Assembly (NCBI GenBank): GCA_036768485.1
Contig: JAVLUZ010000191.1
Span: 2,454,953-2,518,952 of the forward strand
DNA length: 64,000 nucleotides
Source of the DNA: Mermis nigrescens
Taxonomy: Eukaryota > Nematoda > Enoplea > Mermithida > Mermithidae
Direction of reading: 5' to 3'
Numbering within the stretch: the stretch's first letter is position 1; every line of letters starts with the position of its first letter. The notes under the pieces were generated by a model. That model ran no database searches and was not told the DNA's origin. It worked only from the letters and a program-made list of their open reading frames with translations. The position numbers and the translations under genes were made by a program. This document shows, piece after piece, positions 6,620 to 44,942 of the stretch.

Positions 6620-7475
6620 CTGAAAAAGGGCGATGTTTGCCTGCTGTTCAATTTGTGGAAAGTTTTAAGCCCTGAAGCTAGGGTTAACTTTACAAACCTA
6701 CATACAAAATCCACTAATGAACACATAACTTCATCCATGTCATCAGTATTGATCTTAAAATTTGCAAACTTTGTAATATTTTTTGTAAAGTTTGGAATAT
6801 TTTTTCGTAAAGTTTGGAATATTGTTTGTAGAATTTGGAATATTTTTTGTAAAGTTTGGAATATTTTTTGTAAAGTTTGAAATATTTTTTGTAAAATTTG
6901 GAATATTTTTTGTGAAGTTTGAAAATTTTTTTGTAAAATTTGAACTGAATTTTACATGCTTAAGCATAGTACTTTTGCAAAGTTTGGAATATTTTTTGTA
7001 AAGTTTGGAATATTTTTTGTTAAATTTGGAAAATTTTTTGTAAAGTTTGAAATATTATGTATCTAATCTGCATTTATCAAGCATTGATGAAACTATTTTA
7101 TATGCTCTTTGCAACTCATGCGCCTGTTTTGCACCTGTAAGGATTAATTTTCCGCTGGTGAATAGCCAAAATGTTACATTGCAAAATTTTTACACTAATC
7201 CATAAAACAGTTCTACTTCAAACATGTATTTTCTTTTCACCAGCTCATAAAATTTACAAAGATTTATGCGGAACCCTAAATTTGCCAAAATTGCAAACAT
7301 ATGAGGTTTCACCTTTAAATCATCACTTTCAGCATTTAATATATTTACATGCCTGGAAAAGGGCGATATATGCCTGCTATTTAAATAGGGGTGGAAGGGA
7401 ATTTTTAAGCCCTGAGGCTAGGTTTTACTTTGCAAACCTCCACACAGAAGTGATTAATGAATATATAACTTCATC
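6620..7475. repeat. Direct repeat pair (about 120 bp) flanking the AT minisatellite
   Basis: The segment at about 6620-6740 (AAAAGGGCGATGTTTGCCTG, then AGCCCTGAAGCTAGG and AACTTCATC) recurs at about 7350-7475 with substitutions. The two copies bracket the minisatellite, which suggests a local duplication. The open frames across them are not convincing genes. Confidence 0.55.
6770..7060. repeat. AT-rich minisatellite TTTGTAAAGTTTGGAATATT
   Basis: A unit of about 19-20 bp is repeated roughly a dozen times, with a short unrelated break near 6945-6975. The reverse complement of the same unit forms the array at 40060-40315. Both arrays lie downstream of a TBP-like gene when read in that gene's direction. 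Confidence 0.85.
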
Positions 7476-7737: not shown

Positions 7738-8241
7738 CTATTCTAAAATACAACGCACAATAGCAAATGCACGAAACAGTTCATATTTGTGTTCAGCACC
7801 GGTAACAAAAAATTTGCCCTTATGAAAAATAACAGCAGTAACGGCGGGTTTAAACAGTTTCAGAGTGAGCCCTGGAAAAATTTCTGGCTCGTAAAAACAG
7901 TAGGTAGAGCATTTCTTGTACAGTTTAGGCAAATCTACGGGTTTATCGGCTTTGCAAGAACCAACAAAATTCTGCACTTTGAAGTGCAAAATGCGAATAT
8001 TAGGTATCTTCAACGTTTCGATGGCTTTAAGCAAGGCTTGGCGTCCTTCTTCGGAGCTTTTTGTCGCCGTAGAGACCATCTTGCCCGACTTGAAAAGCAG
8101 AACCGTTGCTTTTGGGTCAATCAGCTTGAGGCTCAACCCTGGGAACCGTTTATGAACGCGTAAATTATGCACTTTCGCAAATTCTCCTAAATCCAGAGGA
8201 GTTTTTAAATCAGCACAGCAGACAACGTTGCACACAGACAT
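7738..8241 (-). CDS. Divergent TATA-binding-protein-like protein, intact
   Basis: This 167-residue protein has the two-repeat saddle layout of TBP. Repeat 1 spans about 3-79 (KRFPGLSLKL, VLLFKSGKMVSTATKS) and repeat 2 about 84-166 (FKVQNFVGSCK, YEPEIFPGLTLKLF, VIFHKGKFFVTGAEHK). The four phenylalanines that kink TATA DNA in TBP appear kept at F33, F50, F122 and F139. TBP recruits RNA polymerase to promoters in the nucleus. I chose the second in-frame ATG because the TBP fold starts there; an ATG at 8340 would add 33 residues without similarity. It is clearly too divergent to be an ordinary animal TBP. A related broken gene sits inside the Polinton at 39.5-40.1 kb, and the surrounding repeats are Polinton-like, so an element-borne origin is likely. 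TATAAATT lies 27 bp upstream. It is divergent from the F-box gene. Confidence 0.85.
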   Translation of the reverse strand: MSVCNVVCCADLKTPLDLGEFAKVHNLRVHKRFPGLSLKLIDPKATVLLFKSGKMVSTATKSSEEGRQALLKAIETLKIPNIRILHFKVQNFVGSCKADKPVDLPKLYKKCSTYCFYEPEIFPGLTLKLFKPAVTAVIFHKGKFFVTGAEHKYELFRAFAIVRCILE

Positions 8242-8350: not shown

Positions 8351-9280
8351 ATGGAAAACTTGCCCTATCACGTTCTCTTGCTTATTTTCTCATATTTGGG
8401 AATCAATGAACGAGTCACCTGCGAATCTGTGTGCAAGCGGTGGCTGTATGTTTTGCGGAATTTTGTTGGCCCGATCCAACAGAAGCTGATTTTACACGTC
8501 AAAATCATTGAAAGTATTCGATACAATAATTACACGAGTGGTCTTTTTTCCGCCGGCAACCCCTACAATGACCCAGCGCTATACCCCGTCGTAGGAGGCC
8601 CAAAGGTCGAGCTGATGGTCGCACGTCACAAAGGGAATCGCGCCCTAAAGGGGAAACACAATCGCTACGTCACCGATGCCCTGGAAAGATGCAACCCCGA
8701 AGTTTTGTCATTATCGAACATTGATATTAATGCCTATTGGGGAAGCCGCGTTTTAAATCGATTTTTGCAGTCGAATTCGCAGAAACGCTCGCTAATTTTA
8801 CATGACGCCCGCCTAAAGCTCGAATTTTGGCCCATGGCTGCCTCCAAACCCCTCAATATGCTCGTCATGAGCCATCTTCACCTCAACTCTCATTTTCCAG
8901 AATTTGTTCGCCGCCTCAACCCAGAAAAAATAGTGCTTATCCATGTCATTGTGCCTACGGACTACAATGCTGTACTCTATGCCTCCATGATTCAAGCCAC
9001 TCGCCTTACTTTTCTGTCTCTCGATTTTGCCGACGAACGAATTTCCGAAAATCCCCATCAAAAAGTTTCAGTACGCGATTGTTTCGAAAATATTGTTCAG
9101 TTTTTGTATTTTGATAATCGCGATACTTCGATCACTCTATGTTTTAATTTATCGCAAATTTACGAAAATGATGAAGAATTTAACGACTTTATTGTTCAGT
9201 ATTTTGATCGTGTTAATTTGTACATACTGGACGCGAAACGTCATGCTTCCGGTCTAATTTGTTTTTTTTGGTTTTATTAG
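8351..9280 (+). CDS. F-box protein
   Basis: A 309-residue protein starts MENLPYHVLLLIFSYLG. The first 40 residues are a clear F-box (LPYHVLLLIFSYLG...ESVCKRWLYVL), the part that binds Skp1 in SCF ubiquitin ligases. The rest has Leu-rich stretches without a recognised substrate domain and ends in an aromatic tail (CFFWFY). I chose this ATG because the F-box begins four residues later; an upstream in-frame ATG at 8228 overlaps the TBP-like gene on the other strand. The gene is uninterrupted and its codon use is less AT-biased than the flanks. It lies in a Polinton-related remnant next to a TBP-like gene, so it may be captured cargo or a host gene. The sequence does not decide. Confidence 0.8.
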   Translation: MENLPYHVLLLIFSYLGINERVTCESVCKRWLYVLRNFVGPIQQKLILHVKIIESIRYNNYTSGLFSAGNPYNDPALYPVVGGPKVELMVARHKGNRALKGKHNRYVTDALERCNPEVLSLSNIDINAYWGSRVLNRFLQSNSQKRSLILHDARLKLEFWPMAASKPLNMLVMSHLHLNSHFPEFVRRLNPEKIVLIHVIVPTDYNAVLYASMIQATRLTFLSLDFADERISENPHQKVSVRDCFENIVQFLYFDNRDTSITLCFNLSQIYENDEEFNDFIVQYFDRVNLYILDAKRHASGLICFFWFY

Positions 9281-27825: not shown

Positions 27826-27935
27826 TGGTAGCTTTTGTATTTCGATTTTCTTGGAGTTAGAGGCTCGTATGTTTTCATTTGAACTTGTGGTAGTTTCTGT
27901 ATTTCGATTTTCTCGAGTGTTAGAGGCTCATATAT
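27826..27935 (-). repeat. Short tandem duplication (about 60 bp, two copies) before env
   Basis: Two adjacent copies share GAGCCTCTAACWC, AAAATCGAAATAC and ACCACAAGTTCAAATGAAAA. The repeat lies between the end of the gag-like frame and the env-like frame, so it may mark a recombination or slippage junction. Confidence 0.75.
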
Positions 27936-28395: not shown

Positions 28396-28655
28396 CATAC
28401 GTGGGCAGCAAGAAATTTCTGGGGGGTGCAAGATTTTTTTGAAGGTCAAAAAATGGCCTTAAAAACGATGGTATGGTGATAAAAACACCATTTTTCGACG
28501 TTTCTCATCAAGCACTATCCATTGGCATCAAAAAATTGCGAAAAAAGCGAAAAAAAATTTCAAAAATTGAATTCTAGGGGGGTATTTTGATTTCTGGGGG
28601 GGTATTTTGGTTTCTGGGGGGTGCATACCCCCAAAACCCCCCACGCCCAGGTGTG
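28396..28655 (+). mobile_element. hAT-like MITE
   Basis: Ends are CATACGTGGGCAGCAAG and CACGCCCAGGTGTG. Flanks GTCATCAG (28388-28395) and GTCGTCAG (28656-28663) form an 8-bp target duplication with one mismatch. It is non-coding. Confidence 0.88.
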
Positions 28656-28663
28656 GTCGTCAG

Positions 28664-29364: not shown

Positions 29365-29603
29365 AAAAGCATCTTTTAACGATTGAAAAGCTTTTTGATG
29401 TTCCTCGGTCCAAATAAATTCAGTATCTTTTCATAATAAACGGAAAAGAGGTTTCATAATTTTAGCAAGATCTTTCACAAATTTTTTGAACCATTGTACA
29501 AGACCAAGATATTTTTGTAAAGCTTTCACCGTTTTTGGCACTGGAAAATTGACTAAATCGGCAATTTTGGATAAGTCTACGAGCAATACGTAGCAAACTT
29601 ATG

Positions 29604-30484
29604 TCATGGCCCAAAAAATAGACTTCCGCATGCGCTAAATGGCATTTTTCTGGTTAAGTTTTTAACCCTTAAGTTTGCGTTTTGTAATGCATGAAAAACA
29701 TTTTCTAAATCTTTAAGATGATCGGAAAACGTGCGCAAGAACACAATTATGTCATCAATATATACTAGGCATGTTTTCCAATTTAAACCAGCGAGAACAA
29801 GCTCCATAAGATGTTGAAAATCGGCGGATGCGTTTTTTAAAGCAAAAGGTAACACGTCGAATTCGTAGTGACCTACGGGGCAGATAAAAGCGGTTTTTTC
29901 ACGCAATTTTTCATCAAGGGGGATCTGCCAATACTCAGATTTTAAGTCTAGCATACTAAAGTAGGCTGCAGACCAAAGGGCATCAAAATAATCATCAATT
30001 TGGATAAGGGGTAAATTTGAGTTTTTGTCACATCATTTAATCGGCGATAATCCACAACTGGGCGGAGGGAACCATCTTTTTTCCCAATTAAAAACAAAGG
30101 ACTGGCCCAGGGGCTTGTTGTTGGTCTTATGACTTTTTCCGCAAGTATGTCGTTAATCACTCTTTGCATAGCTTGTCTGTGCGCATGTTTGACATGGTAA
30201 GTTTTGCCTACAACAGGGGGATTATCCCCTGTGTCAATATGATACTTAACAAGTGGAGTACGACCAAGTGGTTTGCCTTTTAATGCGAATATCGAATTAT
30301 ATTTTTGACATAGATCGCGAATTTGCTGCTGTTCCTTAGAATTAACAATGCAACCTTGCAGAGCTTTATTTATGGAAGAAAAGAGTTCGGGTGACCTATC
30401 GTCGGAAACAGTGATATGGGACACTACATCTACGTCAGGCGTTAGCGAGCCAATTAATTCTCCAGTGTCGACTTGAATGGGCAA
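29604..30484 (-). pseudogene. Gypsy reverse transcriptase (decayed copy)
   Basis: Two frames split the domain near 29950. The first has KVIRPTTSPWASPLFLIGKK and RPVVDYRRLNDVTKTQIYPL. The second has LDLKSEYWQIPLDEK, LPFALKNASADFQ and the catalytic box LVYIDDIIVF. G-to-E and G-to-A changes relative to the left-edge copy (KSGYWQ to KSEYWQ, PFGLKN to PFALKN) fall in normally conserved positions and point to loss of function. The stretch 29365-29603 still resembles RT connection sequence but holds stops. Confidence 0.85.
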
Positions 30485-31095
30485 TTTAGAGATGTTTCAT
30501 AATCACAAAGAAAAAACAGAGAGCGAAGTATCGACAAAAGCAGGGGCAACAAAAGGTGAACTTTTGCGCATAAAGTCAGGATCAGGCTCAAAAGTGCAAT
30601 GTTGGCGTTGTAAGACCCATGGCTAATATAAGCTGGTGTTATCAGCTCATGATGTGGCAAAATGGTGATTGGTTCCGAAATCGAAAGATGCACACAGATA
30701 GGACATGCAATTTTTGCATTAGGATTGGTGCAAAAATGCAATTTTCCATTAGGCGATAAAAGATCTAATTTTATACCATTTATAAATGCGCAATGTTCCA
30801 TCGGATTTACCCAAAGCAATGCAGAACAGCAAAAATCAAAACCAAGAAGTAGGTTTTCAGGCAATTTATCAATAATAGAAACCATCGTAGAGGTAGTATG
30901 ATCGGCAATAGTTATGGCCATATTGAATTTAAAACGAACGATTGCTGTCATGTCACCTACACCGTGCACTACATTAGATGTTTGTTTCAGAGGTAATTTG
31001 AAACCTAGTCTTAAAAATGCTGCAGTAGTCATCATTGTGACTTGCGAGCCTGTATCAATTAGTGCCGGCATTTTAACACCTTGAATTTCAGCCAA
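30454..31095 (-). pseudogene. Gypsy aspartic protease (decayed copy)
   Basis: PALIDTGSQVTMMTTAAFLR carries the catalytic DTG, and LLLGFDFCCSALLWVNP matches the left-edge copy. A frameshift near 30560-30600 changes the C-terminal third to an unrelated hydrophobic tail (LLLPLLLSIL), so the polyprotein would be cut short. Confidence 0.85.
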
Positions 31096-31149
31096 AATGG
31101 TGGGTAAATTAGTACCTGCATGACTGACAATCAGAATTTCGGAGTCCTA

Positions 31150-33880: not shown

Positions 33881-34240
33881 AGAGAGGCAGCCTCTCCTGT
33901 GTTATAGCATAGGCGGAGGAGCGCCCTGCTTGTGCCCTGGCTTTCCTCTCAGGGCGCAATGATGAGGGATGGGGACCCAGGGAAACCAAGGAATAAATTC
34001 CTACATATAGGAAGAAGAATATTGCGCATTGGCCAAGCATTTTTTATGATCGACGTTTTTTTAAAGATACAAGTAATATCGCGCATTGACAGTGAATTTA
34101 TAATAAGCGCATTGGCCAAGCATTTTTTGCAGCTGGTAATATCGCACATTGGCAGCGAATTTATAATAAGCGCACTGGCGAAGACAAGTTATATCGCGCA
34201 TTGGCAGCCGAATTTATAATAAGTGCATTTTTTATGATTG
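33881..34240 (+). repeat. Polinton left terminal inverted repeat
   Basis: It begins AGAGAGGCAGCCTCTCCTG. About 150 bp (to about 34030) are nearly identical, inverted, to 44318-44466. The inner part holds about four copies of an ATCGCGCATTGGCAG...TTATAATAAGCGCA module. Within the outer part GCGCCCTG and CAGGGCGC can pair as a hairpin. Confidence 0.9.
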
Positions 34241-34309
34241 ACGCATTGCTCAAATATGCAATGACTATATTGCTATTTTGACTGCTGCATGATGTTTTAA
34301 AATATCATT

Positions 34310-34717
34310 TTAAATAAAGCGAATAATGTAGAGGATGGTTAGAGTGCATAACATTGCAATACAACTCAAAATCTTATTTGAAATGATATTCAAATCTTCT
34401 TTATGTCTGCATTTTATATCACTTTCCAAAAACCTGCCTTCAATTTTAATTCCATTAAAATGCTCATCAATTTTCAAACAGCTTTTACATTTAGGCACAA
34501 ATTTCACAGACTCAAGTTTTGGTAAGCATGTTGTCAAATTTTTCCAATCGGAAACTTGAAAATCACAGCTGTCTCTCAAAATCATGTTTTGGACTGATCT
34601 TGGAAGCCTACTATAGTCTGCTAAATTATGACACACCACCATAGACTCATTCGCATAATGATCACAGTATGCGTCAATCCCATATGTAAAATGTAAAACC
34701 ACTAGCAAGAAAATCAT
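34310..34717 (-). CDS. Polinton small membrane protein, orphan
   Basis: A 135-residue intact frame has a signal peptide (MIFLLVVLHFTYGIDA, 1-16), a lumenal part with seven cysteines (C18, 29, 51, 64, 77, 80, 103) and two N-glycosylation sequons (N23 in NES, N60 in NLT). A single C-terminal membrane helix at about 114-133 (ILSCIAMLCTLTILYIIRFI) has almost no tail. This is a type I or tail-anchored topology at the end of the late gene block. I do not recognise a family. A TATAAATA box lies 28 bp before the ATG. It is intact while neighbours are broken. A role in the host endomembrane system or virion membrane is speculation. Confidence 0.7.
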   Translation of the reverse strand: MIFLLVVLHFTYGIDAYCDHYANESMVVCHNLADYSRLPRSVQNMILRDSCDFQVSDWKNLTTCLPKLESVKFVPKCKSCLKIDEHFNGIKIEGRFLESDIKCRHKEDLNIISNKILSCIAMLCTLTILYIIRFI

Positions 34718-34744
34718 TTTTTATATTTTCTGATCACTGGTTTG

Positions 34745-34752
34745 TATTTATA
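34745..34752 (-). promoter_or_regulatory. TATAAATA box for the membrane protein gene
   Basis: An exact TATAAATA on the minus strand, 28 bp before the ATG at 34717, placed just beyond the 3' end of the penton gene. Confidence 0.65.
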
Positions 34753-34754
34753 AC

Positions 34755-35506
34755 CTACTGGCGTCTAAAATGCAATTTAACTAAAGTTTTGCCAAATTCA
34801 AAAGGCACAGGTTTATCTTGATCACTTTTAATGTTCACTCCAATGGTATTGAATGGTGGACTAATATATGCATGATTAACAATATCCATATATTTTCCTT
34901 CTATATTCACAACCTGCAGAAGCGGTGCAAAAACATTTCCAACGATTTGAGGTTCAACTATATCACAATACATGTAAAAATTATGCATTCCATCCAGCAT
35001 TTCAGGAGAATGATGGGCAGCTATGATTATTCTTGTGCGACCGTATAATTTATATCACTAAGCTGACTTTCTAGATATCCTAGCATATACATTAAATGCT
35101 TTGTCAGCTTTACACTTCGAATATATTTGGTATTGATTGTTGAGTGACAAAATTTTCCATTTTCATCATACTTTATACCAAAATATTGCATGTATTCAAA
35201 TTTTTCTTTCAAACTAACCATTTTTATTCCCTCACTGATTGTTTTAACAAGATCATGTATATTTAGGTATCTTGCTCGAGGAATAAGCATTTTTATTCGA
35301 ACATTATTTTTTAAATCGTAAAATTGTATCATATTCTGCTCCTTGGCAACATTGTGCCATGTATTTGCATAAATTATTGCAGATAACCCAACATCCCAGT
35401 CACCAGTTAATGCGATTTGTCTAGGCAGATTGGTAACAAATGTGGCTGCAGTATTTGTTTCTTGGGAATTGCTCGGAAGCGTTATGTAAAACTGTTTTAA
35501 ATCCAT
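34755..35506 (-). pseudogene. Polinton penton (single jelly-roll minor capsid protein), frameshifted
   Basis: The first frame (35027-35506) starts MDLKQFYITLPSNSQ and has LTGDWDVGLSAIIYANTWHN, the familiar N-terminal signature of Polinton/adintovirus pentons. The second (34755-35000) has YCDIVEPQIVGNVFAPLLQV and ends PVPFEFGKTLVKLHFRRQ, the usual C terminus. One frame change near 35000-35030 separates them; total length is about 250 codons, near the family norm. Pentons cap the fivefold vertices of the icosahedral shell. It starts two bases after the protease stop and lacks its own TATA box. Confidence 0.9.
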
Positions 35507-35511
35507 GTTTA
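35504..35511 (-). promoter_or_regulatory. TAAACATG stop/start junction, protease to penton
   Basis: The protease stop TAA is followed by AC and then the penton ATG. The same eight bases occur at the capsid-protease junction. Confidence 0.7.
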
Positions 35512-35925
35512 TAATTCTAGTTTATTAAAGTAATTATTAATTTTTTTACTGAGCATAGACAGAACAATGTTTGTGAAACTTATGCCTTGGCTCATGCAGA
35601 CCAAAAAGTAGATACACATATGACTACAGCTAATTGAAAAAAGCCCTTCTACTTGCATTTTATTGTATGTAAATGAGAGCGCATTATCAGAAATATATTG
35701 ATGTAATTGAATATTTGGTTCTAACCCATAGCTGTCAAAATAGTCACAATGCTTCTTATTTTGGAAATAAATTGCGACCCAGTGCGATCCTAGTTCCTTA
35801 CTGGAGTCCAAAGTTACAACCAGAGCTGCAGGGTAATTTTTTATAGGTGGCAGAAGATCTATGGGGAAAACGCCTGCAAATATATTATTATGTCTGAGAA
35901 TTTTGAATATTTCAATAGTGTTCAT
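35509..35925 (-). CDS. Adenain-type cysteine protease of the Polinton, intact
   Basis: A 138-residue protein of the adenovirus protease (C5)/Ulp1-like fold that matures capsid precursors inside the particle. The catalytic His is H48 (ELGSHWVAIYF), followed by acidic D64 (CDYFDSYG). Q91 lies at the oxyanion position and the catalytic Cys is most likely C100 (LFSISCSHMCIYFL), with C104 four residues on as in the adenovirus enzyme. An N-terminal LPPIKNYPAALVV segment is typical of Polinton proteases. It is shorter than adenovirus protease but close to Polinton homologues. It lies between capsid and penton, joined to both by TAAACATG, so it is probably translated from the same message. Confidence 0.93.
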   Translation of the reverse strand: MNTIEIFKILRHNNIFAGVFPIDLLPPIKNYPAALVVTLDSSKELGSHWVAIYFQNKKHCDYFDSYGLEPNIQLHQYISDNALSFTYNKMQVEGLFSISCSHMCIYFLVCMSQGISFTNIVLSMLSKKINNYFNKLEL

Positions 35926-35930
35926 GTTTA
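35923..35930 (-). promoter_or_regulatory. TAAACATG stop/start junction, capsid to protease
   Basis: The capsid stop TAA, two bases (AC), then the protease ATG. It is identical to the protease-penton junction and has no TATAAATA nearby. Confidence 0.7.
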
Positions 35931-37223
35931 TGCATCATAGTCATGAAACGTGTTTCGACTTTTATCAATCATTATTAAGTTATCAAATTCAGCATATATA
36001 ATGATTTCAACGCCAGAATCTGGCAAAATTTCAGAAAACCTAACAGCGATGCTCGTTGTTCCTTCACAAACTAGGTCCCAGTGTCCTCCATCATCTGCAT
36101 CAGGGTTCAAATCGAACACAAAGAAGCAGTGACTTGTTTTAAAATCTTCTCTGCTAATAAAATTACCTTCGTGCCCAATATCTAATGCATCAAACATCTG
36201 AGTATAAGCTTGCAAGTACCTGTCATGTTTAAATGAAATGCTGAGTGGGTAAGCAGGATATGTTAAACCTCCACACGTTTTACTTTTACATCATTTATGC
36301 TGAACGGTTTGAAGTTGAATGGCGATTTTGCCAAGTTGCCTCGATAAGCACTGCCTTCAACACAGGCAAACACTATATGCCTAGGCAGCTGACCAGTGAA
36401 CAATGTATAATTGGGCGTTTCTCTCGCAGGATTTGAAATGTGCAAATTAGTCAAAGCTACACGCCTTATGGGATATTTTGCTGTATATGAAAGCATTGTT
36501 TGCTCAAGAGCTAAATTCACAGTGTCCAAAACCTCAACTTTTTGAATAAATAATTTCATTTGGGGAGACTTTTAAGTCAAGGCTGACATCCTCAAAGCAC
36601 TGCAAAACAAATGCATTATTTTTTCTGTGTAATTCTAGGCGGAAATCAGTAATATTAACTAAATATCTGTCTTGCAAGAACATGTCAATGTGCAGTGGGG
36701 CCGCGACTTCCACAACATTTTCATCTTTGAACATTTTTGAACGTTTCTTGAAAGCTTCATTCTCTTTTGTGTCAACATCGCCTCCACCTTCATGAAAGTA
36801 CAGCACAGATTGCAAGTGTGAATGTTTGGCATCGTACCCATAATTCAATTCAGTTTCAAAATATGATCTATATGCATATTTATCAGAGCTGTCAAAAACT
36901 AATTTGCCTCCTAAAAAGCATTTTACTTGCTTGAAGAAAGTCTTACCAATAAGATTGGTAGGCGCATAGTCAGGCACTGCTGCTCCAGCAGCAACAACTG
37001 GTCTTTTGATTCTCAGTAGCATATAAATGTAGTTTTTATTGAGCTGAATATAATGTGGATCAGGAGGTACTCTAAACTCACAGGGCCCCTCATTAGTAAT
37101 AGGATTTGTAGGTTGAATTTCATGCTAAAAACCACGCTTTATCACTACTTGAGTAGGAGGGACCGTGAAAAGGTCCAATTCAGTTTTAGTACTGGGAATA
37201 GATTTTCCATTTACAAGAGCCAT
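35928..37223 (-). pseudogene. Polinton major capsid protein (F54H12.2-type double jelly roll), broken
   Basis: The start is MALVNGKSIPSTKTELDLFT at 37223, just inside the end of the pVI-like frame. Conserved blocks follow: DKYAYRSYFETELNYGYDAK, LHIDMFLQDRYLVN, LSYTAKYPIRRVAL, LFTGQLPRHIVFACVEGSAY, KSPFNFKPFSIND, then ISREDFKTSHCFFVFDLNPD and IYAEFDNLIMIDKSRNTFHD at the C terminus. An in-frame TAG at 37127-37125 and frame changes near 36545 and 36215-36265 break it. The span of about 430 codons is slightly short for the family. It would form the hexameric capsomers of the shell. A TATA box lies 34 bp upstream. Confidence 0.92.
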
Positions 37224-37629
37224 TTTTTTGTTTCGAAAAAGCATCTATCATGCTAGTATTTATAGACTTTGGGCGACTACCAAGACTCTCTCCTTGCTGC
37301 TGCTGAAGGGCATGAGAGGCTTCATCAAAAAGTTGTGCAGCTTCTCGCTTTGAGTGTTCTTTAGTAGATTCAAAAAGCGGTTTTCCTTGGGCCAAGTCAG
37401 ACACTATGTTTAAACCTGCAACTAGAGCATGTTTTCCAACTTGCTTACCAATTGACTGCAAAACTGGGACTGCCATTCTGAAAAGCGAACGGAAAAAGCT
37501 GCCAAGACCCACGCCCCGCTGGTATGGGATGCCTTTATACCCCTCCAACCCATAACCTGTTTGGGCAGCCTGCCCTGTGTAATAGTCCAACCAAATGTTG
37601 TAGTCGTTAGGATTGAATTGAACGTGCAT
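37186..37629 (-). CDS. Polinton pVI-like virion protein
   Basis: I take the start as MHVQFNPNDYNIW at 37629 because TATAAATA lies 38 bp upstream; upstream in-frame ATGs would lie across that box. About 147 residues. The middle (GVGLGSFFRSLFRMAVPVLQ, then SIGKQVGKHALVAG) is the conserved amphipathic segment seen next to capsid genes in Polintons and likened to adenovirus protein VI, which disrupts membranes during entry. Gly-rich surroundings (TGYGLEGYKG) could hold adenain cleavage sites. The frame overlaps the capsid start by 38 bp, and the last 15 or so residues look non-conserved, so the true stop may have been lost. Confidence 0.75.
   Translation of the reverse strand: MHVQFNPNDYNIWLDYYTGQAAQTGYGLEGYKGIPYQRGVGLGSFFRSLFRMAVPVLQSIGKQVGKHALVAGLNIVSDLAQGKPLFESTKEHSKREAAQLFDEASHALQQQQGESLGSRPKSINTSMIDAFSKQKNGSCKWKIYSQY
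37257..37264 (-). promoter_or_regulatory. TATAAATA box for the major capsid gene
   Basis: Exact match on the minus strand, 34 bp before the capsid ATG, inside the 3' end of the pVI-like frame. Local context is TCTATAAATACTAGCA. Confidence 0.65.
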
Positions 37630-37666
37630 TTTTGTAATTTTATTTGAAGGAATTAAATATGATAAG

Positions 37667-37674
37667 TATTTATA
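37667..37674 (-). promoter_or_regulatory. TATAAATA box for the pVI-like gene
   Basis: Exact match on the minus strand, 38 bp before MHVQFNPND, at the 3' end of the preceding core-like gene. Context GTCTATAAATACTTATC matches the other boxes beyond the core octamer. Confidence 0.65.
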
Positions 37675-38512
37675 GACTTTCATCCCAGACGAATTCACTA
37701 CCTGCAGCAAAAATCTCCGTAACTTGTCTGTTTGCTATACTTTCCAGTGGAACATTTGTGTGATTAAACACTTTCAGCAATTCTTTTGTGCCAGGATGCC
37801 TACTTATTTTCTTACGCTCATGTGCAAGATCATTAACTAAATCTGTAATGTTTGAACCTTCAATTTTATTGCCATCTATCACAAGCTCGCCATTAGGCTC
37901 AATTTCAATAAATATTTGTACGAATGTAGTGAAGAAAGAGTTTGGCCTTTGGAATCTGATTTTTTGGCATAATAACCATACGTGGGCAGCAAGAAAATTC
38001 TGGGGGGTGCAAGATTTTTTTGAAGGTCGAAAAATGGCCTTAAAAATGGTGGTATGGCAATAAAAACACCATTTTTCGACGTTTCTCATCAAGCACTATC
38101 CATTGGCATCAAAAAAATTGCGAAAAAAACGAAAAAAATTTTCAAAAATTGAATTCTGGGGGGGGTTTTGATTTCTGGGGGGGGTATTTTGGTTTCTGGG
38201 GGGGGGGGTGCATACCCCCCAAACCCCCTCCCCAAGCCCAGGTGTGATAATAACGAGCACATCTTCATCACTCAAAGCATTTTTTGCATCTTAAAGTATA
38301 CTAGCTCTATATGGCTGCTGCTTTTGTTCATATAGTCGTTTAAATCTGTTAAGTGCCTGATTGTATTTCATGAGTTTTATTTTAGGAGCTACACTTTTGC
38401 TATGCAAAACTTTTCGCATTTTATTATCCAAGGAATCTAGCACAACATCAATAGGTTTAGTCCGCTCACTGATTTCACTGGCTATAAGAATCATCTTTTC
38501 AGTATGTTTCAT
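37670..38512 (-). pseudogene. Polinton core-like protein gene split by a MITE
   Basis: The N-terminal frame (38291-38512) begins MKHTEKMILIASEISERTK and is basic. The C-terminal part (to 37670) has IEPNGELVIDGNKIEGSNIT followed by DLVNDLAHERKKISRHPGTK, a block that recurs in Polinton proteins lying between capsid and ATPase genes. The MITE at 37977-38245 separates the two parts. Function is unproven; a DNA-binding core role is inferred from basic composition and position. Its ATG overlaps the stop of the preceding small gene as ATGA (38512-38509), and it has no TATA box. Confidence 0.7.
37977..38245 (+). mobile_element. hAT-like MITE inside the Polinton core-like gene
   Basis: Ends CATACGTGGGC and GCCCAGGTGTG with a perfect 8-bp duplication ATAATAAC (37969-37976 and 38246-38253). 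Confidence 0.93.
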
Positions 38513-38859
38513 TTTCTACCAACTATTGCATCAGCTAACAAACTAACAGCTATTGTAAGTATAGGGTAGTAAGAAGAGGAAGGAAACCACATTCTTGTAT
38601 TATAATATCTTTCTTTTGTTTTGTAGTTGCCTGCCTATTCTTCTGCCAGGTATCTTATTTTAATTCTGATATCTTTGAAGTTTATTTATATCCTTCTCAG
38701 CAAAAGGAATATTACCATTCAGAAAGTTGTTTGCACAGTCACAGAGGCAAAGGATTTGATCTTTGCTGGCAGTATTTATCATAGTGGTTCTTTGAGGTTT
38801 TTTGCTTGACTTAGTAGATGTAAAAAACCAATATTGCATGTTAATCGTTCTTCACCCAT
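38509..38859 (-). pseudogene. Small conserved Polinton gene, broken
   Basis: Short in-frame pieces resemble a small Polinton protein found between ATPase and core genes: a start MGEERLTCNIGFLHLLSQ, then LCLCDCANNFLNGNIPFAEK, then a hydrophobic GFLPLLLTTL near the C terminus. At least two frame changes (near 38780 and 38590) break it. The final frame ends in TGA overlapping the ATG of the core-like gene. A TATAAATA box lies 25 bp before the start. Cellular role unknown; the hydrophobic tail suggests membrane or capsid-internal location. Confidence 0.6.
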
Positions 38860-39497
38860 TTTTTGTTGCAATGTCTCTACTAGTATTTATAGATTTCTGC
38901 ACATAAACAGTTGGATGAGGGCTGAAAATATTTGTTTTAAGCCTCAGCTCATCTCTAGCATTTTGAGTTAGATCAATTAAAAGGTAACCATGTGGCTGAG
39001 AAGTAGCGTCTGAATAAGCTTCTAGAAATATTTAGCGTTGGCAGGATAGAGCTGTCTGGAAAGCATTTGTGCCTGTAGCTGATCAGCAGGGTGTTTGAAT
39101 AAAACTATATAATCAGAGTTGATGCGTGAAGTTCTTAGACCATTGAAGAAAACGTCTTGAACAATGTGTATAATGCTAATGTTCCAATGATGACAACTCG
39201 TAAAAGTTGAACAATCTGGGCATTACCCTTGCTCTGTTGCATAAGATCATCGAGAATCAACAGTTGTGGCACATGACTAAATTGTTTTAAGTAATTAAAA
39301 TCACGAAGTCCTTCTTTGAATAAAACATCATTTAATTTTTTATAAAGAGGCTGATTTGCTGCAAAGCACCACCAAATCTTTTTGATTTTAATATCAATCA
39401 AGTGTGCTCAATTTTCGATTAATTGCGTGACAAATGTTGTTTTGCCAGACTTGGTTGGTCCTGAAACAAGGCAGGTGAAAGGATGTTGGAACATCAT
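38852..39497 (-). pseudogene. Polinton DNA-packaging ATPase (FtsK/HerA, A32-like), broken
   Basis: The start (MMFQHPFTCLVSGP) leads directly into a Walker A, GPTKSGKT. A Walker B-like LLILDDLM follows in the frame at 39135-39401 (KIWWCFAANQPLYKK, FSHVPQLLILDDLM). The C-terminal part (YIVLFKHPADQLQAQMLSRQ, GYLLIDLTQNARDELRLKTN) is typical of adintovirus/Polinton ATPases. There is an in-frame stop near 39410 and frame changes near 39150 and 39020. The enzyme would pump DNA into preformed capsids. The promoter is a one-base variant, CATAAATA, 34 bp upstream. Confidence 0.9.
38884..38891 (-). promoter_or_regulatory. TATAAATA box for the small conserved gene
   Basis: Exact match on the minus strand, 25 bp before the ATG at 38859, within the 3' end of the ATPase gene. 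Context ATCTATAAATACTAG. Confidence 0.6.
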
Positions 39498-39535
39498 GGT
39501 TATAGGTATAAATATAAGTTTATCATGAAGTATTT
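39498..39535. promoter_or_regulatory. Overlapping divergent promoters, ATPase (-) and TBP-like gene (+)
   Basis: TATAAATA on the plus strand at 39507-39514 lies 29 bp before the TBP-like ATG (39536). On the minus strand CATAAATA (39538-39531) lies 34 bp before the ATPase ATG. The two boxes face away from each other within about 30 bp. Confidence 0.6.
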
Positions 39536-40062
39536 ATGGAAAATGGTGACTATACAGAACATTGTGCTGACTACAGCACTACCAAATACGCTGAATCTAG
39601 TATGATATCTACCCTAAATTGCCAAATACTGCCCAATACAATCACTAAAAATTTCCAGGCATCATATTTTGATTACCTCAGGCAACATTGCTGATTTTCA
39701 AGTCGTGTAAAATTGTATGTGTTGGAGCAAAAACTATGCAAGAAGGCGAAAATACGATGAAGACATTCATTGACACACTGAAGATGGAGAATTTCATGTT
39801 GAAAATAAAGCCAGTGCTGTTTGTTGGCTCAGCTAACTTGGGATTCCGCATTGATCTTTGTAAGTTTTATGAGCTGGTGAAAAGAAAATGCATGTATGAA
39901 GTAGAATTATTTCCCGGATTAAAATACAAATTTAGAAAAGAGACCTTTTTTACTCTTTACAAGTGGGAAAATGATTCTCACGGGTGCAAAACACAAGCAT
40001 GAGTTGCATTTAGCATATAAAATAGTTTCAACAATGCTTGAAAAATGCAACTTAGATACGAA
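39536..40062 (+). pseudogene. TBP-like gene inside the Polinton, broken
   Basis: Pieces match the two-repeat layout of the intact TBP-like protein at 7.7-8.2 kb. Repeat 1 ends LIFKSCKIVCVGAKTMQEG; repeat 2 has YEVELFPGLKYKFRK and ILTGAKHKHELHLAYKI. Compare FKSGKMVSTATKSSEEG, YEPEIFPGL and VTGAEHKYELFRAF in the intact copy. Frame changes near 39690 and 39990 break it, and a Gly has become Cys after the first repeat's Phe. The last frame runs on into the minisatellite, adding a Lys/Tyr-rich repeat tail. It sits divergently from the ATPase, between it and the integrase, so it is Polinton cargo. An intact protein could redirect transcription to the element's own TATA boxes; this is inference. Confidence 0.78.
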
Positions 40063-40315
40063 ATATTCCAAATTTTACAAAAAAATTTGCAAACTTTACA
40101 AAAAATATTCCAAACTTTACAAAAATATTCCAATTTTTACAAAAAATAGTCCATACTTTGCAAAAGTACTATGCTTAAGCACGTAAAATTAATTCCAAAC
40201 TTTACAAAAAATATTCCAAATTTTACAAAAAAATTTCCAAACTGTACAAAAAATATTCCAAACTTCACAAAAAATATTCCAAAGCTTTACAAAAAATATT
40301 GCAAAGTGTAAAAAT
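40060..40315. repeat. AT-rich minisatellite AATATTCCAAACTTTACAAA
   Basis: Roughly twelve units of about 19-20 bp, the reverse complement of the array at 6770-7060. It has the same orientation relative to the TBP-like gene as that array. Confidence 0.85.
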
Positions 40316-40336
40316 CTGGCCTTTAGGCGCCCTTTT

Positions 40337-41706
40337 TTAGACGTTTATAACTTTATCAGGTTTGATGACCCAGGAATTAAACTTTTCTGGGTACCCTCGC
40401 CAGCACACTACATTATCAGTTTTATTGCCTTTCTTACACATTTTCAAAATCTTTTCAACAATAAACAAGTCATCCGAGGATATATCAATTTTTTGCAGTT
40501 CAGGTTCGTAAAAAATACCCTTGACTTTTTTGCCCATTTGGTCTTCTAAAACGTAAACCGGGCGGTGTGCGAGCAAACCTCTCTTTAATTATGAAAAACT
40601 CCTCTGTCCAGTTAGGCCAAAATCCTTTTTCAAAAGCGTGCTTAACTTTACTCAGTCGGACTCTATCACCAATATTAAATTTTAAAACGACATTCTGTTT
40701 ATCAATCCTAAATGCTTTATTTAAAATTTCTGTCTCATTTTTAACTGTAACATTAGCTGGCGAGGTACCTATCGTACGATGCTTGGAGTGATAATAGTTT
40801 TTCATCAAGTCGGGTAATACATCAATAAATTTATATGAATTGCTCTTGGTGAAGTACCGCCACGTACGTTCTTTAAGTGTGTGATTAAAACATTCAACTA
40901 TGCTAGCCTTCATTTCCGCTTTTAGTTGTGAAAAAATCGATAAATTCAGATTTAAGAAATTTTGGAATTCTTTGTTTGTAAATTCGGTCCCTGCATCTGT
41001 TTGCAGCTTGTACGGTTTTCGATTTCATGAATGCAAAATTCTTTGAAAAGCAGTCAGAGCCATACGTGGGCAGCAAGAAAATTCTGGGGGGTCCAAGATT
41101 TTTTGAAAGGTCAAAAAATGGCCTTAAAAATGGTGATATGGCGATAAAAACACCATTTTTCGACGTTTCTCATCAAGCACTATCTATTGGCATCAAAAAA
41201 TTGCGAAAAAAACGAAAAAAATTTTCAAAAATTGATTTCTGGGGGGGGGGCCTTTTTGATTTCTGGGGGGGTCTTTTGGTTTCTGGGGGGTCCAGGCCCC
41301 CCCCCAGAATCCCCCCTACGCCCATGTGTGGTCAGAACATCTTTTGAACTTTTTGATTTCAAAGGGATGGACCATGCATACTTTGAAAATATGTCTATGC
41401 AATTCAAGAGATACTTAAAATTATCGTTAAACTTGCTTAAGGACTGCATCTACGATATCACATTGCCATTGCTCATCAATGCTACTTTCTAACACTTTAT
41501 TTCGAGAATACCTCTTAAGGGGCGGGTTTGTGTAACGTGTAGGTGAGCTGCTTTTCCAACCATTGTTTCACGTAGGACCGGTCTATTTTTGGCTTTACTT
41601 TTAGCCCTCTCATATAGCTGTTCCACACTACTATACCCCATTTTAGGGTCGTGATATATGTGCTTTCAACACTTTTTCCATTTTTTAAAATTTTATAACA
41701 GTCCAT
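40337..41706 (-). pseudogene. Polinton integrase (retroviral-like, chromodomain-like C terminus), broken
   Basis: N-terminal frame 41515-41706 (MDCYKILKNGKSV) is followed by catalytic-core blocks on both sides of a MITE: SLSKFNDNFKYLLNCIDIFS (41336-41449) and ECFNHTLKERTWRYFTKSNS with a conserved Glu region after it (40500-40913). The C-terminal part has KFNIGDRVRLSKVKHAFEKG, WPNWTEEFFIIKERF, then VVCWRGYPEKFNSWVI, the chromodomain-like end common in Polinton integrases. Frame changes lie near 41520, 41450 and 40560 and the MITE interrupts the core. The enzyme would insert the viral DNA into the host genome. Confidence 0.9.
41061..41330 (+). mobile_element. hAT-like MITE inside the Polinton integrase
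   Basis: Ends CATACGTGGGC and GCCCATGTGTG. Flanks GTCAGAGC (41053-41060) and GTCAGAAC (41331-41338) make an 8-bp duplication with one mismatch. Confidence 0.9.
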
Positions 41707-41729
41707 CTATTTATTAACATCATTCTGTC

Positions 41730-41737
41730 TATAAATA
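41730..41737 (+). promoter_or_regulatory. TATAAATA box for DNA polymerase B
   Basis: Exact match on the plus strand, 40 bp before the ATG at 41770. Context GTCTATAAATAACG shares the preceding TC with other boxes. Confidence 0.65.
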
Positions 41738-42255
41738 ACGATTAGTATGTATGTAGTTTTAATTTGAAAATGAAGCAGTACTTTGAAGTACATGAGCTCC
41801 CACACATTTCTGTTCATAGGTTTAGGACAACCGCTAAGGCATTTTTGTTGCGTTTTAAGAAATGCACTAATCTCTTTGAGATTTTCGAACAGATTTTTGA
41901 AAAATCTATTAAACTGATGTTGCATGGCTGTCCTTATGACAGTATGGTAGGCATTGAAATTAGACAGCCAAGCCTTTATACACCTGTGTTAGTACCATTC
42001 ACCCAACGTCAATACATAAATGCTGACAAGGTTTTGAGTATTATAGAAAAGGTGGCTCAGTCCCAAAAAGGCTTTTGTTTAAGTGAAGACTTGACTTTCA
42101 AAGTAGTTCTGGTGGACAAAAAACCCCAAATGGGTACTGGTTATGAATTTGAAGTAGGTGACTTTTGCGAAAATGGTGGGGCATATATTAAAATCACATC
42201 AAACGATAATTTATCATTAGCCAGAGCTGTTGTAACAGGTATAGCAAAGCTATAG

Positions 42256-42797
42256 TCTGTTTCATTTATTCGGGAGCTTTCTAGTCAATTCTTTTAAGGG
42301 CTACAGTAAGCTAAACAAGACGAATTACTGTACTCCAGCAGATCAGCTCAGTGAGGGCGAGTAGTTAGAATGATTCCATTTTTAATCTTTATAATACGCC
42401 CAAGTAAATTTGATTTAGGCATTTAATCAGTGCTGGGACATACTACAGTAAGTGCGCTAAACAAAAAGCTATCAGCTAGAATCGAACCCGGATTGCTTTG
42501 ACTACAAGCAAGAGGTTTTACCACTGAGCTATGCGGGAGTTCGCGGCGTTTCTTAGCATCTTAGTCGATTGTGTTTGAAGTGTCGACTCAGGATATGATG
42601 AATGCGCGATTTTTATCAGTAAGTTAATTGATCTGCTGTAAGACGAGAATAAATTATTCCGCAAAAATGTTGTTGAAAAACCCGTCTTTACTACATAGCT
42701 ATAGTGAGATGTAGCGACCTACAGTAAATAAGAAAGAAGGGGTTACTGTAAGCTCCAAAAACATTTGCTGAAAAAGCTCTCGGATAAATGAAACAGA
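42256..42797. mobile_element. Non-autonomous DNA transposon with 26-bp TIRs inside polB
   Basis: Terminal inverted repeats TCTGTTTCATTTATTCGGGA and, inverted, TCTGTTTCATTTATCCGAGA continue to AGCTTT. CTATAG flanks both sides (42250-42255 and 42798-42803), a candidate 6-bp target duplication that is itself palindromic. It has no coding capacity and carries a tRNA-like segment. Confidence 0.85.
42478..42548 (-). other. Degenerate tRNA-like sequence within the transposon
   Basis: The minus strand holds a B-box-like GGGTTCGATTC and an A-box-like TAGCTCAGTGG about 30 bp apart. The anticodon-arm candidate is TTGCTT-GTAGTCA-AAGCAA. The T stem pairs poorly and the acceptor stem does not close, so this is a tRNA-derived relic, not a working tRNA gene. 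Confidence 0.5.
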
Positions 42798-43260
42798 CTA
42801 TAGACAACTGCCCTAAGTGGGAATCTGTTCGGAAAGGTGACAAAGGACGGCACACTCTGCAAAAGCAACTTGCATTAGAGCTGATGCACAAAGCTGATCT
42901 AAGCATTAATGACGAGAAATATGGACTTGAAGCTGTAGACAAAATTCAGAAGAGTCTGGTGCCAGACTAACAAATAAAAGTTTATCATAGCAATATTTTG
43001 TACTTTCAAGGGCCTGAGGCTGAGAAAGTAATTCACTTGCACGCTGCTAATAATCATTATGATCTAATTCCAAAAATGCCTGAGAAGCCCTAGGCTTGGC
43101 TGGCATCAATACTGTAGGAAAATTGTCTCGCCAATGCGCTAGCAGGCTATTAGTGGTGGGCTGGGCAACCACCATTTCTTTACATACACAATAGGTACAT
43201 GATGCCTCTGAGAGGCGCTAATTTTTTTGGTTTTTTCATTTTTCAATTCAATAAAATCGT

Positions 43261-43586
43261 TTATAATACGCGACTAACTAGCTTGTTTAAGCAATTTTCA
43301 TACATGCTTTCCCATGTATTTTTGCCATTTTGATCGAAATCTTGCCATAAATCTAAAATAGGCTCAATTTCACAATTTATTAGACATTCTTTCACATAAA
43401 GTGCAAAATTCCAAAATGCTTTCGATTATCGAGGCTTTTGCGATTTTCTTTGTATTCTTCAGAAAGCAAACTCCGTAAGCAGGAGCCAATGCTTTGTACA
43501 TCGTGAGAAGTGATGTACCTCGTCCAGGCTTTATCAGCCAACTTGGTCACAAAATGATTAAAACTCAATTCACCTTGAGAACTCAT
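43261..43586 (-). pseudogene. Orphan Polinton gene, frameshifted
   Basis: The start MSSQGELSFNHFVTKLADKA is preceded at 32 bp by TATAAATA. One frame change near 43410 separates a first half (64 codons) from a second half with WNFALYVKECLINCEIEP and NTWESMYENCLNKLVSRVL. Total about 110 residues, mostly helical in appearance, with Trp and Cys. I do not recognise it. It lies just after the zinc-ribbon gene near the right TIR, where Polintons often keep variable cargo. Confidence 0.5.
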
Positions 43587-43617
43587 TTTGTAGATAATTT
43601 TTGTCAGATATTGCTCA

Positions 43618-43625
43618 TATTTATA
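43618..43625 (-). promoter_or_regulatory. TATAAATA box for the orphan gene
   Basis: Exact match on the minus strand, 32 bp before the ATG at 43586, overlapping the gap after the zinc-ribbon gene. Confidence 0.6.
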
Positions 43626-43628
43626 ACT

Positions 43629-43952
43629 TTACAAGCCATTTTTCACTTCTTCAACCTGTTGAGCAATATATTTCTTAATCACCATGTTCCCAGCCTCCTG
43701 GGATGCCCGATTATACTCACAACATCTTGGGCACATTTGAACATTAAAATACCATTTTCCTGAATTTGTTTCAAAAACGTCTTTTTCAGACAAATTTTTC
43801 TGACAAAAATGACATAAATGTATCATGAGAGGGTACATGGGACGCTCCAGATTTCTCCCACATAACTCAATAGGCGGTCGTATTGTCCGCCCATAAGGTT
43901 TCTTCTCCTCATCCATAAAAGGACGTTTTTTCAATTCCATATTTTCCTCCAT
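43629..43952 (-). CDS. Polinton zinc-ribbon-like protein, orphan
   Basis: A 107-residue intact frame begins MEENMELKKRPFMDEEKKPY. Two CxxC pairs, C47/C50 (HLCHFCQKNL) and C74/C77 (VQMCPRCCEYN), are spaced 23 residues apart as in a zinc ribbon. The N terminus is basic and the C terminus (VIKKYIAQQVEEVKNGL) looks helical. Zinc ribbons often bind nucleic acid or transcription factors, but no family is recognised. TATAAATA lies 35 bp upstream, and it is the first minus-strand gene inside the right TIR. Confidence 0.65.
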   Translation of the reverse strand: MEENMELKKRPFMDEEKKPYGRTIRPPIELCGRNLERPMYPLMIHLCHFCQKNLSEKDVFETNSGKWYFNVQMCPRCCEYNRASQEAGNMVIKKYIAQQVEEVKNGL

Positions 43953-43986
43953 TTTTAAAGATTTAAATTGCTGAAAGAATTATAAG

Positions 43987-43994
43987 TATTTATA
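43987..43994 (-). promoter_or_regulatory. TATAAATA box for the zinc-ribbon gene
   Basis: Exact match on the minus strand, 35 bp before the ATG at 43952. Context AATCTATAAATACTTAT is nearly the same as at the pVI-like gene. Confidence 0.65.
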
Positions 43995-44162
43995 GATTTT
44001 GCAAGACCAAAACGGCTTGGAAATTGGGGTTTGAACTTCTAATCTAGAGAAGCGGTCTACCCCTTGAATGATTAAGATGCAGTAGACAATGGACCTAGAC
44101 TATAAATAAATATTTCATCACATGCACTTAAAATGGTTTGCCTCGTTCAAAAAAATTGGGCA

Positions 44163-44466
44163 AAATCCATCCATCCTGGCGCGAGAATTATCAATTTAAC
44201 GCTATTGCCTCTCCAGTCAACAAAATGCGCTTATTATAAATTCCGCTGCCAATGCGCGATATAACTTGTCTTCACCAGTGTGCTTATTATATTCATTGTG
44301 CTTCAATCAATGTTACTTTGCCAATGCGCAATATTCTTCTTCCTATATGTAGGTATCTCATTCCTTGGCTTACCTGGGCCCTCATCATTGCGCCCTGAGA
44401 GAAAAGCCAGGGCGCAAGCAGGGCGCTCCTCCGCCTATGCTATAACACAGGAGAGGCTGCTTCTCT
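44163..44466 (-). repeat. Polinton right terminal inverted repeat
   Basis: Ends GAGAGGCTGCTTCTCT, matching the left TIR inverted over about 150 bp. The inner part has two of the ATAACTTGTC/GCGCTTATTATAAATTC modules against about four on the left. Positions 44163-44235 also match the remnant at 5990-6060. Confidence 0.88.
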
Positions 44467-44519
44467 ACGATTGGGTGGGCGGGGCCTATAACACAAAACA
44501 TAGCCGTATATACTTTGTG

Positions 44520-44942
44520 TTGCGGCCTAGGGACGCACGGCTATACTATTACAATGCTATAAGATATGACGTGATACTTCATACCCAATGCTATAAGATA
44601 GGATGTGCTATAACATACCGAGTATTACAAGATAGGATATGATATAATATACCCAATGCTGTAAGATAGGACGTAATATAACATACCCAATGCTGTAAGA
44701 TAGGACGTAATATAACATAACCCATGTTATAAGATAGAACGTGATACAACATACCCAACACTATAAGATAGGACGTGATACAACATACTCAATGCTACAC
44801 AATAGGACGTGATATAACATACCCCATGCTATAGGATGGGACGTGATATAACATACCCAGGTTTACAAGATAGGACGTGATATAATGTACCCCATGCTAC
44901 AAGATAGTACGTGATATACCATATCCTGTGCTGTAAGATAGG
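44520..44942. repeat. Minisatellite, period about 36-37 bp
   Basis: Unit ATGCTATAAGATAGGACGTG followed by ATATAACATACCCA, about eleven imperfect copies, starting some 50 bp outside the right TIR. No coding potential. Confidence 0.88.

What the first reader, a model, noticed from the sequence alone, without database searches (positions are those of the whole stretch)
39536..40062. A TATA-binding-protein-like gene carried inside a Polinton/Maverick provirus
Seen: a broken two-repeat TBP-like frame on the plus strand between the packaging ATPase and integrase, within the TIRs, with its own TATAAATA. Known: TBP homologues occur in some giant viruses; I am not aware of one described in a Polinton. 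Inference: the virus family encodes a divergent TBP to redirect or complement host transcription on its own promoters. Shared motifs with the intact copy at 7.7 kb (FPGL, VTGA/LTGAxHKxEL) argue it is a recurring cargo gene, not an accident.
Basis: partly seen in the sequence, partly recalled or inferred. Interest (0 to 1): 0.92.

Follow-up and report, generated by a model that had tools for sequence, protein, structure and literature searches.

The report
Polinton proviruses carrying their own TATA-binding protein
Virus-like mobile elements, present in many copies in what is probably a parasitic-nematode genome, carry their own version of the cell's master transcription-start protein (TBP), which suggests that these small animal viruses bring their own switch for turning on their genes.

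Summary
Window 39540-40057(+) is a TBP gene broken into three frames, between the packaging ATPase and integrase of a decayed Polinton. It recurs: a genome search gave 150 matches (the scoring cap), 110 in open frames of 166 aa or more. Of 14 further loci of this family read, 11 show ATPase-TBP-integrase; one has an integrase-like stretch in between, one is cut by an assembly gap, and one, rearranged, lacks it.

The 7.7-kb gene is a different TBP type. Seven types occur; five share a fetched stretch with ATPase or capsid genes. All but type E group together, with four environmental proteins, apart from the host's two-exon TBP. dN/dS is 0.09-0.24 in 7 of 8 pairs. Intercalating phenylalanines are nearly all kept. 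TATAAAT precedes 21 of 42 element gene starts, but also 18 of 47 other long frames, many of them recurrent element genes.

Best reading: a virus-lineage TBP serving the elements' own TATA promoters. Binding, expression and need are untested. No TBP in a Polinton turned up in the library searched.

The parts
39540..40057 (+). TBP-like gene, type B, broken into three frames (ATG 39543)
   Evidence: Pfam PF00352 on separate pieces; tblastn 39540-39599, 39604-39951, 39947-40057
39507..39514 (+). TATAAATA in the ~45-base gap between the divergent ATPase and TBP starts
   Evidence: sequence; a TATAAATA in 11 of 12 other type B starts printed
38855..39533 (-). packaging ATPase (A32-like), broken into several frames
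   Evidence: tblastn to relatives; Pox_A32 E 7.7e-5, just under the curated cut-off, in a relative of the same family
40340..41665 (-). integrase (rve + chromodomain), broken and interrupted by a dispersed repeat
   Evidence: relative L033 rve E 8.4e-14, chromo E 4.5e-9
40063..40310 (+). 21-bp tandem repeat (AATATTCCAAACTTTACAAAA-like) between TBP and integrase, shared with 6.76-7.05 kb
   Evidence: borders by eye; same unit in L050
35931..37124 (-). major capsid protein (double jelly-roll-like), broken frames
   Evidence: weak DJR match, under cut-off, in relatives
35512..35934 (-). adenovirus-type maturation protease
   Evidence: Peptidase_C5 E 1.9e-5 in relative L033
34758..35521 (-). penton / minor capsid-like frames
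   Evidence: conserved position next to PRO in relatives; the name is recalled
37189..37734 (-). conserved Polinton-family frame, function unknown
   Evidence: 95% in L033, 92-94% over parts in L036
34313..34720 (-). conserved Polinton-family frame (ORF34)
41746..42252 (+). conserved frame; resembles the N-terminal part of Polinton PolB by recall only
   Evidence: 94-97% in L031, L033, L036; no Pfam family
43632..43979 (-). conserved frame with two CxxC pairs (ORF43)
33881..34231 (+). left terminal inverted repeat, outer ~80 bases missing
44222..44550 (-). right terminal inverted repeat
7741..8241 (-). second TBP gene, type A, open frame (stop-to-stop 7741-8364)
   Evidence: PF00352 E 2.3e-38; PDB TBP E 2.3e-28
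8351..9277 (+). F-box gene, divergent from TBP-A, its frequent partner
   Evidence: F-box-like E 1e-8; beside the TBP in 16 of 25 loci L001-L025, some of which overlap
7061..7348 (-). fragment of a type B TBP
   Evidence: 69.8% to L033 TBP residues 77-172

Best explanation
The gene is the decayed copy of a TBP that is a resident gene of Polinton (Maverick) elements in this genome, probably that of the mermithid nematode Mermis nigrescens (inferred from assembly size alone). The TBP is a single-frame, virus-lineage gene kept by selection. Proposed mechanism: early in the element's life cycle the TBP is made from a TATA promoter in the ~45-base gap that it shares with the ATPase; the saddle binds TATAAATA boxes set just upstream of element genes, and its conserved stirrup recruits host TFIIB and RNA polymerase II, so element promoters fire independently of, or in competition with, the host TBP/TFIID supply. 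Shown: TBP family, place in the element, copy number, phylogenetic separateness, selection, TATA boxes. Inferred: DNA binding, TFIIB/Pol II recruitment, timing, independence from host TBP.
For: TBP identity. Recurrence at one position: (68 of 150 capsid-gene copies have a listed TBP 1.7-4.2 kb away against about 1.2 expected; 5 of 6 loci picked for having none listed do carry it). Several Polinton lineages. Purifying selection in 7 of 8 pairs. Separate group, support 99/96. Intercalating Phe columns 16, 16, 16 and 13 of 16, and the stirrup Glu pair 16 of 16. TATAAAT in 16 of 28 hand-picked upstream windows (1.4-1.5 expected), 14 of the 16 at -31 to -45; 21 of 42 non-redundant recognised gene starts.
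Against: No expression, binding or structure data: the AlphaFold job was never returned. TATAAATA is a box that host TBP should also read, so a private TBP is not obviously needed. Half of the recognised gene starts lack the motif, among them those of TBP types C2, D, E and F and one type C. Type B and F TBPs have lost the conserved second-repeat Asn (L or M), which could weaken DNA binding rather than retune it. Motif controls are weak: a first automatic count showed no excess of recognised genes over other long frames (16 of 46 against 8 of 30; 8 of 31 against 11 of 24); after separation, other frames still have it in 18 of 47 (many are recurrent element genes) and only 3 clearly spurious frames remained, 0 of 3. 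The 28 windows were hand-picked.
Confidence: 0.62

Rival explanations
1. Host-directed decoy: the element's TBP acts on the host, titrating TFIIB/TAFs or redirecting host promoters, and the TATA boxes in the element are ordinary host-read promoters.
For: Loss of the second-repeat Asn in types B and F would fit a TBP that binds partners better than DNA; canonical TATAAATA can be read by host TBP; F-box or F-box-like genes, a plausible host-directed cargo, lie near TBP types A, D, F and one C.
Against: Intercalating Phe and the repeat-1 Asn are kept in nearly all 16 TBPs compared; TATA boxes sit at a rather constant distance from element start codons.
Confidence: 0.2
2. Host gene family: TBP paralogues of the nematode that were swept into Polintons by chance and spread as passengers.
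For: Many TBP frames exist; the stretches of L042 (7.2 kb) and L027 (3.5 kb) show TBP without capsid or ATPase genes; type B fragments also lie beside type A outside the ATPase-integrase setting (L001, L005, L006, L017, L025); type E groups nearer cellular TBPs.
Against: The host TBP is a two-exon gene, while the Polinton TBPs read here are single-frame and, but for type E, form their own group 99/96; conserved position and dN/dS 0.09-0.24 in 7 of 8 pairs.
Confidence: 0.08
3. The TBP is needed for the element's DNA replication or integration (for example as an origin- or TIR-binding protein) rather than for transcription.
For: TBP is a DNA-bending protein, and in family B it lies in a packaging/integration neighbourhood.
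Against: Its position varies among lineages (after the penton gene in L040, after ATPase and two frames in L030); boxes are found before genes; TIRs were not tested for sites.
Confidence: 0.1

Closest known systems
Polinton/Maverick elements of animals
   Same: Integrase with chromodomain, A32-like ATPase, adenovirus-type protease, double jelly-roll-like capsid protein, TIRs
   Different: Carries TBP; the window copy has no room for the PolB polymerase domain. A text search for 'TATA' found nothing in three Polinton papers (PMC4028283, PMC8097293, PMC10120064)
Mirusvirus TBPs
   Same: A eukaryotic DNA virus lineage with TBP as a core gene (59% of genomes; passages of PMC10132985; also a passage of PMC12768974)
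   Different: Large viruses with an HK97-fold capsid (passage of PMC10675990); their TBPs were not in my tree
Giant-virus and phycodnavirus TBPs
   Same: Virus-encoded TBP (passages of PMC5871332 and PMC4602308)
   Different: Bodo saltans virus has its own RNA polymerase subunits; I recognised none in the Polinton stretches, but did not search for them
Beta/gamma-herpesvirus TBP-like BcRF1/ORF24
   Same: Viral TBP-like protein that nucleates a viral pre-initiation complex and recruits Pol II (passages of PMC4893493)
   Different: Recognises TATT boxes and was found by structural resemblance; here clear sequence homology and canonical TATAAATA
Haloarchaeal virus TBPs (HRTV-9, HJTV-2)
   Same: Annotated TATA-box-binding proteins in viruses
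   Different: 28-42% identical over the matched parts, archaeal hosts

Membership tests
TATA-binding protein (PF00352) | two TBP repeats over the curated cut-off | tested here: met
   TBP-A 130 bits against cut-off 22.9; an open type B copy matches PDB TBPs full length, E 1.3e-29
TATA-binding protein (PF00352) | DNA-intercalating phenylalanine pairs | tested here: met
   16, 16, 16 and 13 of 16 Polinton TBPs; that these are the intercalating residues is recalled
TATA-binding protein (PF00352) | conserved Asn in each repeat | tested here: inconclusive
   Repeat-1 Asn 16 of 16 by eye on the alignment printed (the column labelled N_r1 there is not this residue); repeat-2 Asn in 9 of 16, L/M in types B and F
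TATA-binding protein (PF00352) | binds and bends TATA DNA | not testable with these tools
   needs a binding assay
Polinton/Maverick | rve integrase | tested here: met
   E 8.4e-14, plus chromodomain
Polinton/Maverick | adenovirus-type protease and A32-like ATPase | tested here: met
   Peptidase_C5 E 1.9e-5 (L033) and 3.1e-7 (L040); Pox_A32 E 1.6e-7 in L030, and in family B 7.7e-5 (22.7 bits against cut-off 22.8) in L039 and 0.025 in L033
Polinton/Maverick | double jelly-roll capsid protein | tested here: inconclusive
   DJR-like E 0.011 and 3.8e-4, both under the curated cut-off; no hit for the L051 piece
Polinton/Maverick | protein-primed PolB | tested here: inconclusive
   No room for it between the listed genes of the window copy, where both TIRs are seen (L033 was seen only from its right end to the penton gene); a PolB-like frame (by eye) beside type F in L043, but Pfam gave nothing for its first 123 aa; the genome search for it did not complete
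Polinton/Maverick | terminal inverted repeats | tested here: met
   Window copy: matches of 90-94% over a span of about 350 bases; only right ends were read in other copies; target-site duplication not established

The most novel reading that the evidence does not exclude
Animal Polintons of several deep lineages share an old, virus-specific TBP clade that nucleates a private pre-initiation complex on TATAAATA promoters with very short leaders: small integrating viruses with a self-supplied transcription-initiation switch, analogous to the herpesvirus viral pre-initiation complex but built on a true TBP. Types B and F would have a retuned second half-site.
Probability: 0.4. Interest if true: 0.9.

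Novelty: new variant of a known kind. Interest (0 to 1): 0.8.

Why it matters
Polintons are central to models of the origin of eukaryotic DNA viruses, and how they get transcribed is little known (recalled view). A TBP that is kept across lineages makes this testable: bind the protein to the boxes, map the 5' ends. It also adds a virus-lineage group to the TBP tree and explains why one genome holds over a hundred single-frame TBP genes, which could otherwise be misannotated as a host gene expansion.

Tried and rejected
Dead ends. (1) Scans of viral contigs with the TBP alignment, capsid protein, ATPase alignment and integrase gave no relative. (2) A 3148-aa frame around one TBP proved to be an assembly gap of N. 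(4) A first automatic motif count showed no excess: 16 of 46 and 8 of 31 recognised genes against 8 of 30 and 11 of 24 other frames; since many of those other frames turned out to be recurrent element genes, separated them, which left only 3 truly spurious frames as control. (5) Host TBP expansion and chance TBP-like frame: disfavoured on gene structure, tree and copy number. (6) The Asn column labelled N_r1 was picked wrongly; the repeat-1 Asn was read from the printed alignment.

Rows left out: I pasted 109 of 150 Pfam rows (left out: mostly places also in the type B list, or second domains) and 146 places (152 matches, not all listed; second pieces left out). The first tree had 27 rows; the second 30, after dropping polB_L034, polB_L045, P0003, P0006 and P0010, cutting P0002 to 170 residues and adding eight. 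P0003, a very long branch, had fallen on the Polinton side in the first tree. The group tested was named after seeing the first tree.

Full report
WHERE IT IS. The window is part of a genome of 523,963,438 bases in 860 contigs. Mermis nigrescens, a mermithid nematode, has a published assembly of 524,220,005 bases in 867 scaffolds, 84% repeats (passages and one section of PMC10989877). I infer that species from size alone; the record is unnamed.

THE OBSERVATION. Pieces of a TBP gene lie at 39540-39599, 39604-39951 and 39947-40057 in three frames of the plus strand. Taken apart, two pieces match Pfam TBP at E 1.4e-15 and 7.8e-6, and the 5' piece alone matches nothing. PDB TBPs match the middle piece at E 6.7e-15. 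The gene lies between ATPase pieces and integrase pieces, both on the minus strand, in an element that also has capsid, protease and other frames and TIR matches of 90-94%. The element is decayed and holds two copies of a dispersed repeat.

IT RECURS. A search of the genome with one TBP piece returned 150 matches, the window's own included, which is the number scored out of 1811 candidates; 110 of 150 lie in an open frame of at least 166 aa (one gap artefact left out), 97 of exactly 172 or 173 aa. I read six of these loci, 10 kb each: in each, at least one TBP of 169-173 aa is open and stands between ATPase pieces (in L031 only a short one) and integrase on the opposite strand. L031, L032 and L035 hold two facing TBPs. 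As a test against my reading I took six capsid-gene loci that had no listed TBP nearby: five carry it, four as ATPase-TBP-integrase and L048 with an integrase-like stretch of 33-42% identity in between; L049, rearranged and without ATPase or integrase in the stretch, has none. Not all of these TBPs are open: L045 has two stops, L048 two pieces. L039 adds one more ATPase-TBP-integrase; L050 has TBP and integrase but a gap on the other side. Over the lists, 68 of 150 capsid copies have a listed TBP within 6 kb, at 1.7-4.2 kb, where about 1.2 are expected by chance; the lists are capped, so this is a lower bound. Fragments of type B also lie outside this setting, beside type A (L001, L005, L006, L017, L025) and in L042.

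MORE THAN ONE LINEAGE. The 7.7-kb gene in the window is a second type (A). Of the 25 loci L001-L025 (some overlap), 16 show an F-box gene beside the TBP; in L007 the pair adjoins the end of a Polinton ATPase. Others: type C after ATPase and further frames (L026, L030); C2 with capsid, protease and penton genes (L041) or downstream of capsid, protease and ATPase (L051); E directly after capsid, protease and penton (L040); D and F beside an ORF43 relative and F-box or F-box-like genes (L038, L043), tied to Polintons only by that gene, by short integrase pieces in L038 and by a PolB-like frame, by eye, in L043. L042 shows TBPs without capsid or ATPase gene in 7.2 kb.

NOT THE HOST TBP. The host gene is C73:2488114-2491278, two exons, the best two matches to the Pfam model; it looks close to human TBP (by eye). 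In a tree of 30 proteins, Polinton types A, B, C, C2, D and F plus environmental proteins P0001, P0002, P0004 and P0124 form one group against 13 others (host, human, catfish, ants, plant, Blastocystis, archaeal and archaeal-like, type E and one unnamed), support 99/96. Type E falls with the cellular TBPs, but placing it with the rest is not rejected (p-AU 0.22). The first tree of 27 showed the same split, with the long-branched P0003 on the Polinton side (98/95). Giant-virus and mirusvirus TBPs were not in the trees. The environmental relatives (41-57% identical) lie on contigs of 1.2-6.7 kb whose context I could not read.

SELECTION AND RESIDUES. Between subfamilies dN/dS is 0.11-0.24 for type B (five pairs), 0.13 for C2, 0.09 for C and 0.47 for the close A pair; penton and one integrase pair gave 0.09, a near-identical integrase pair 0.41, and the capsid pair had saturated dS. 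Across 16 Polinton TBPs the four intercalating Phe are kept in 16, 16, 16 and 13, and the two stirrup Glu in 16. Types B and F share with P0004 the loss of the repeat-2 Asn. Residue roles are recalled.

PROMOTERS. The TBP and ATPase starts are divergent, about 45 bases apart; TATAAATA lies in the gap in 11 of 12 other type B starts printed. In 28 hand-picked upstream windows of 90 nt, 16 hold TATAAAT against 1.4-1.5 expected from locus density or resampling, 6 on the reverse strand; 14 of the 16 lie 31-45 nt before the ATG. A first automatic count showed no excess over other long frames. After separating gene starts that align with a relative's start, 21 of 42 have it, as do 18 of 47 other long frames, many of them recurrent element genes; the clean control was only 3 frames, 0 of 3. 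Such a spacing would put the transcription start a few bases before the ATG (inference).

HOW IT MOST LIKELY WORKS. The element supplies its own TBP to fire its TATA promoters through host TFIIB and Pol II. The nearest working analogy is the beta/gamma-herpesvirus TBP-like protein on TATT boxes (passages of PMC4893493); the nearest gene-content analogy is the mirusvirus core TBP (passages of PMC10132985). Whether the host TBP would suffice is the main open point.

IN PRINT. Searches of an open-licence library listed no paper on a TBP in a Polinton in the rows shown (for some only 15 of 335, 193 and 231). I opened eleven papers by text search: passages in nine, no occurrence in two (PMC8097293, PMC4028283); no whole text. 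Papers listed that I did not open: PMC7786948, PMC11464507, PMC12085832. The Cymbomonas paper puts sporadic TBPs with elements of putative mirusvirus origin, not with its Polinton-like viruses (passages of PMC10675990). Subscription papers are not covered.

Noticed in passing
window 33881-44550; L033: The window's Polinton has no room for a PolB polymerase domain; a conserved frame (41746-42252; 264 codons in L033) resembles the N-terminal part of Polinton PolB by recall only.
   Followed up: partly
L031, L032, L035: Elements occur as facing twins, each arm with its own TBP and, in L031 and L032, integrase.
   Followed up: no
window 8351-9277; L038, L043, L035, L027: F-box or F-box-like genes lie near TBP types A, D, F and one C; in type A the two starts are divergent and about 110 bases apart.
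   Followed up: partly
window 43632-43979; L038:2768-3139: ORF43 is a conserved Polinton-family gene with two CxxC pairs, perhaps a zinc ribbon; in L038 it directly follows TBP-D on the same strand.
   Followed up: no
L040:3367-3930: Type E TBP, behind the penton gene, groups with cellular TBPs and may be a second, independent capture.
   Followed up: partly
window 12644-23343: About 10 kb of tandem array with spacings often near 189 and 293 bases.
   Followed up: no
window 28377, 37958, 41042, 54896, 57153: A dispersed repeat of about 245 bases, 69-83% alike, of which two copies lie inside the Polinton.
   Followed up: no
window 23656-32612: Retroelement-like frames (reverse transcriptase and protease by eye) left of the Polinton.
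   Followed up: no
L051:6562-6999, L030:1161-1460: A frame next to TBP C/C2 looks Hsp20-like by eye; Pfam gave no family over its cut-off.
   Followed up: partly
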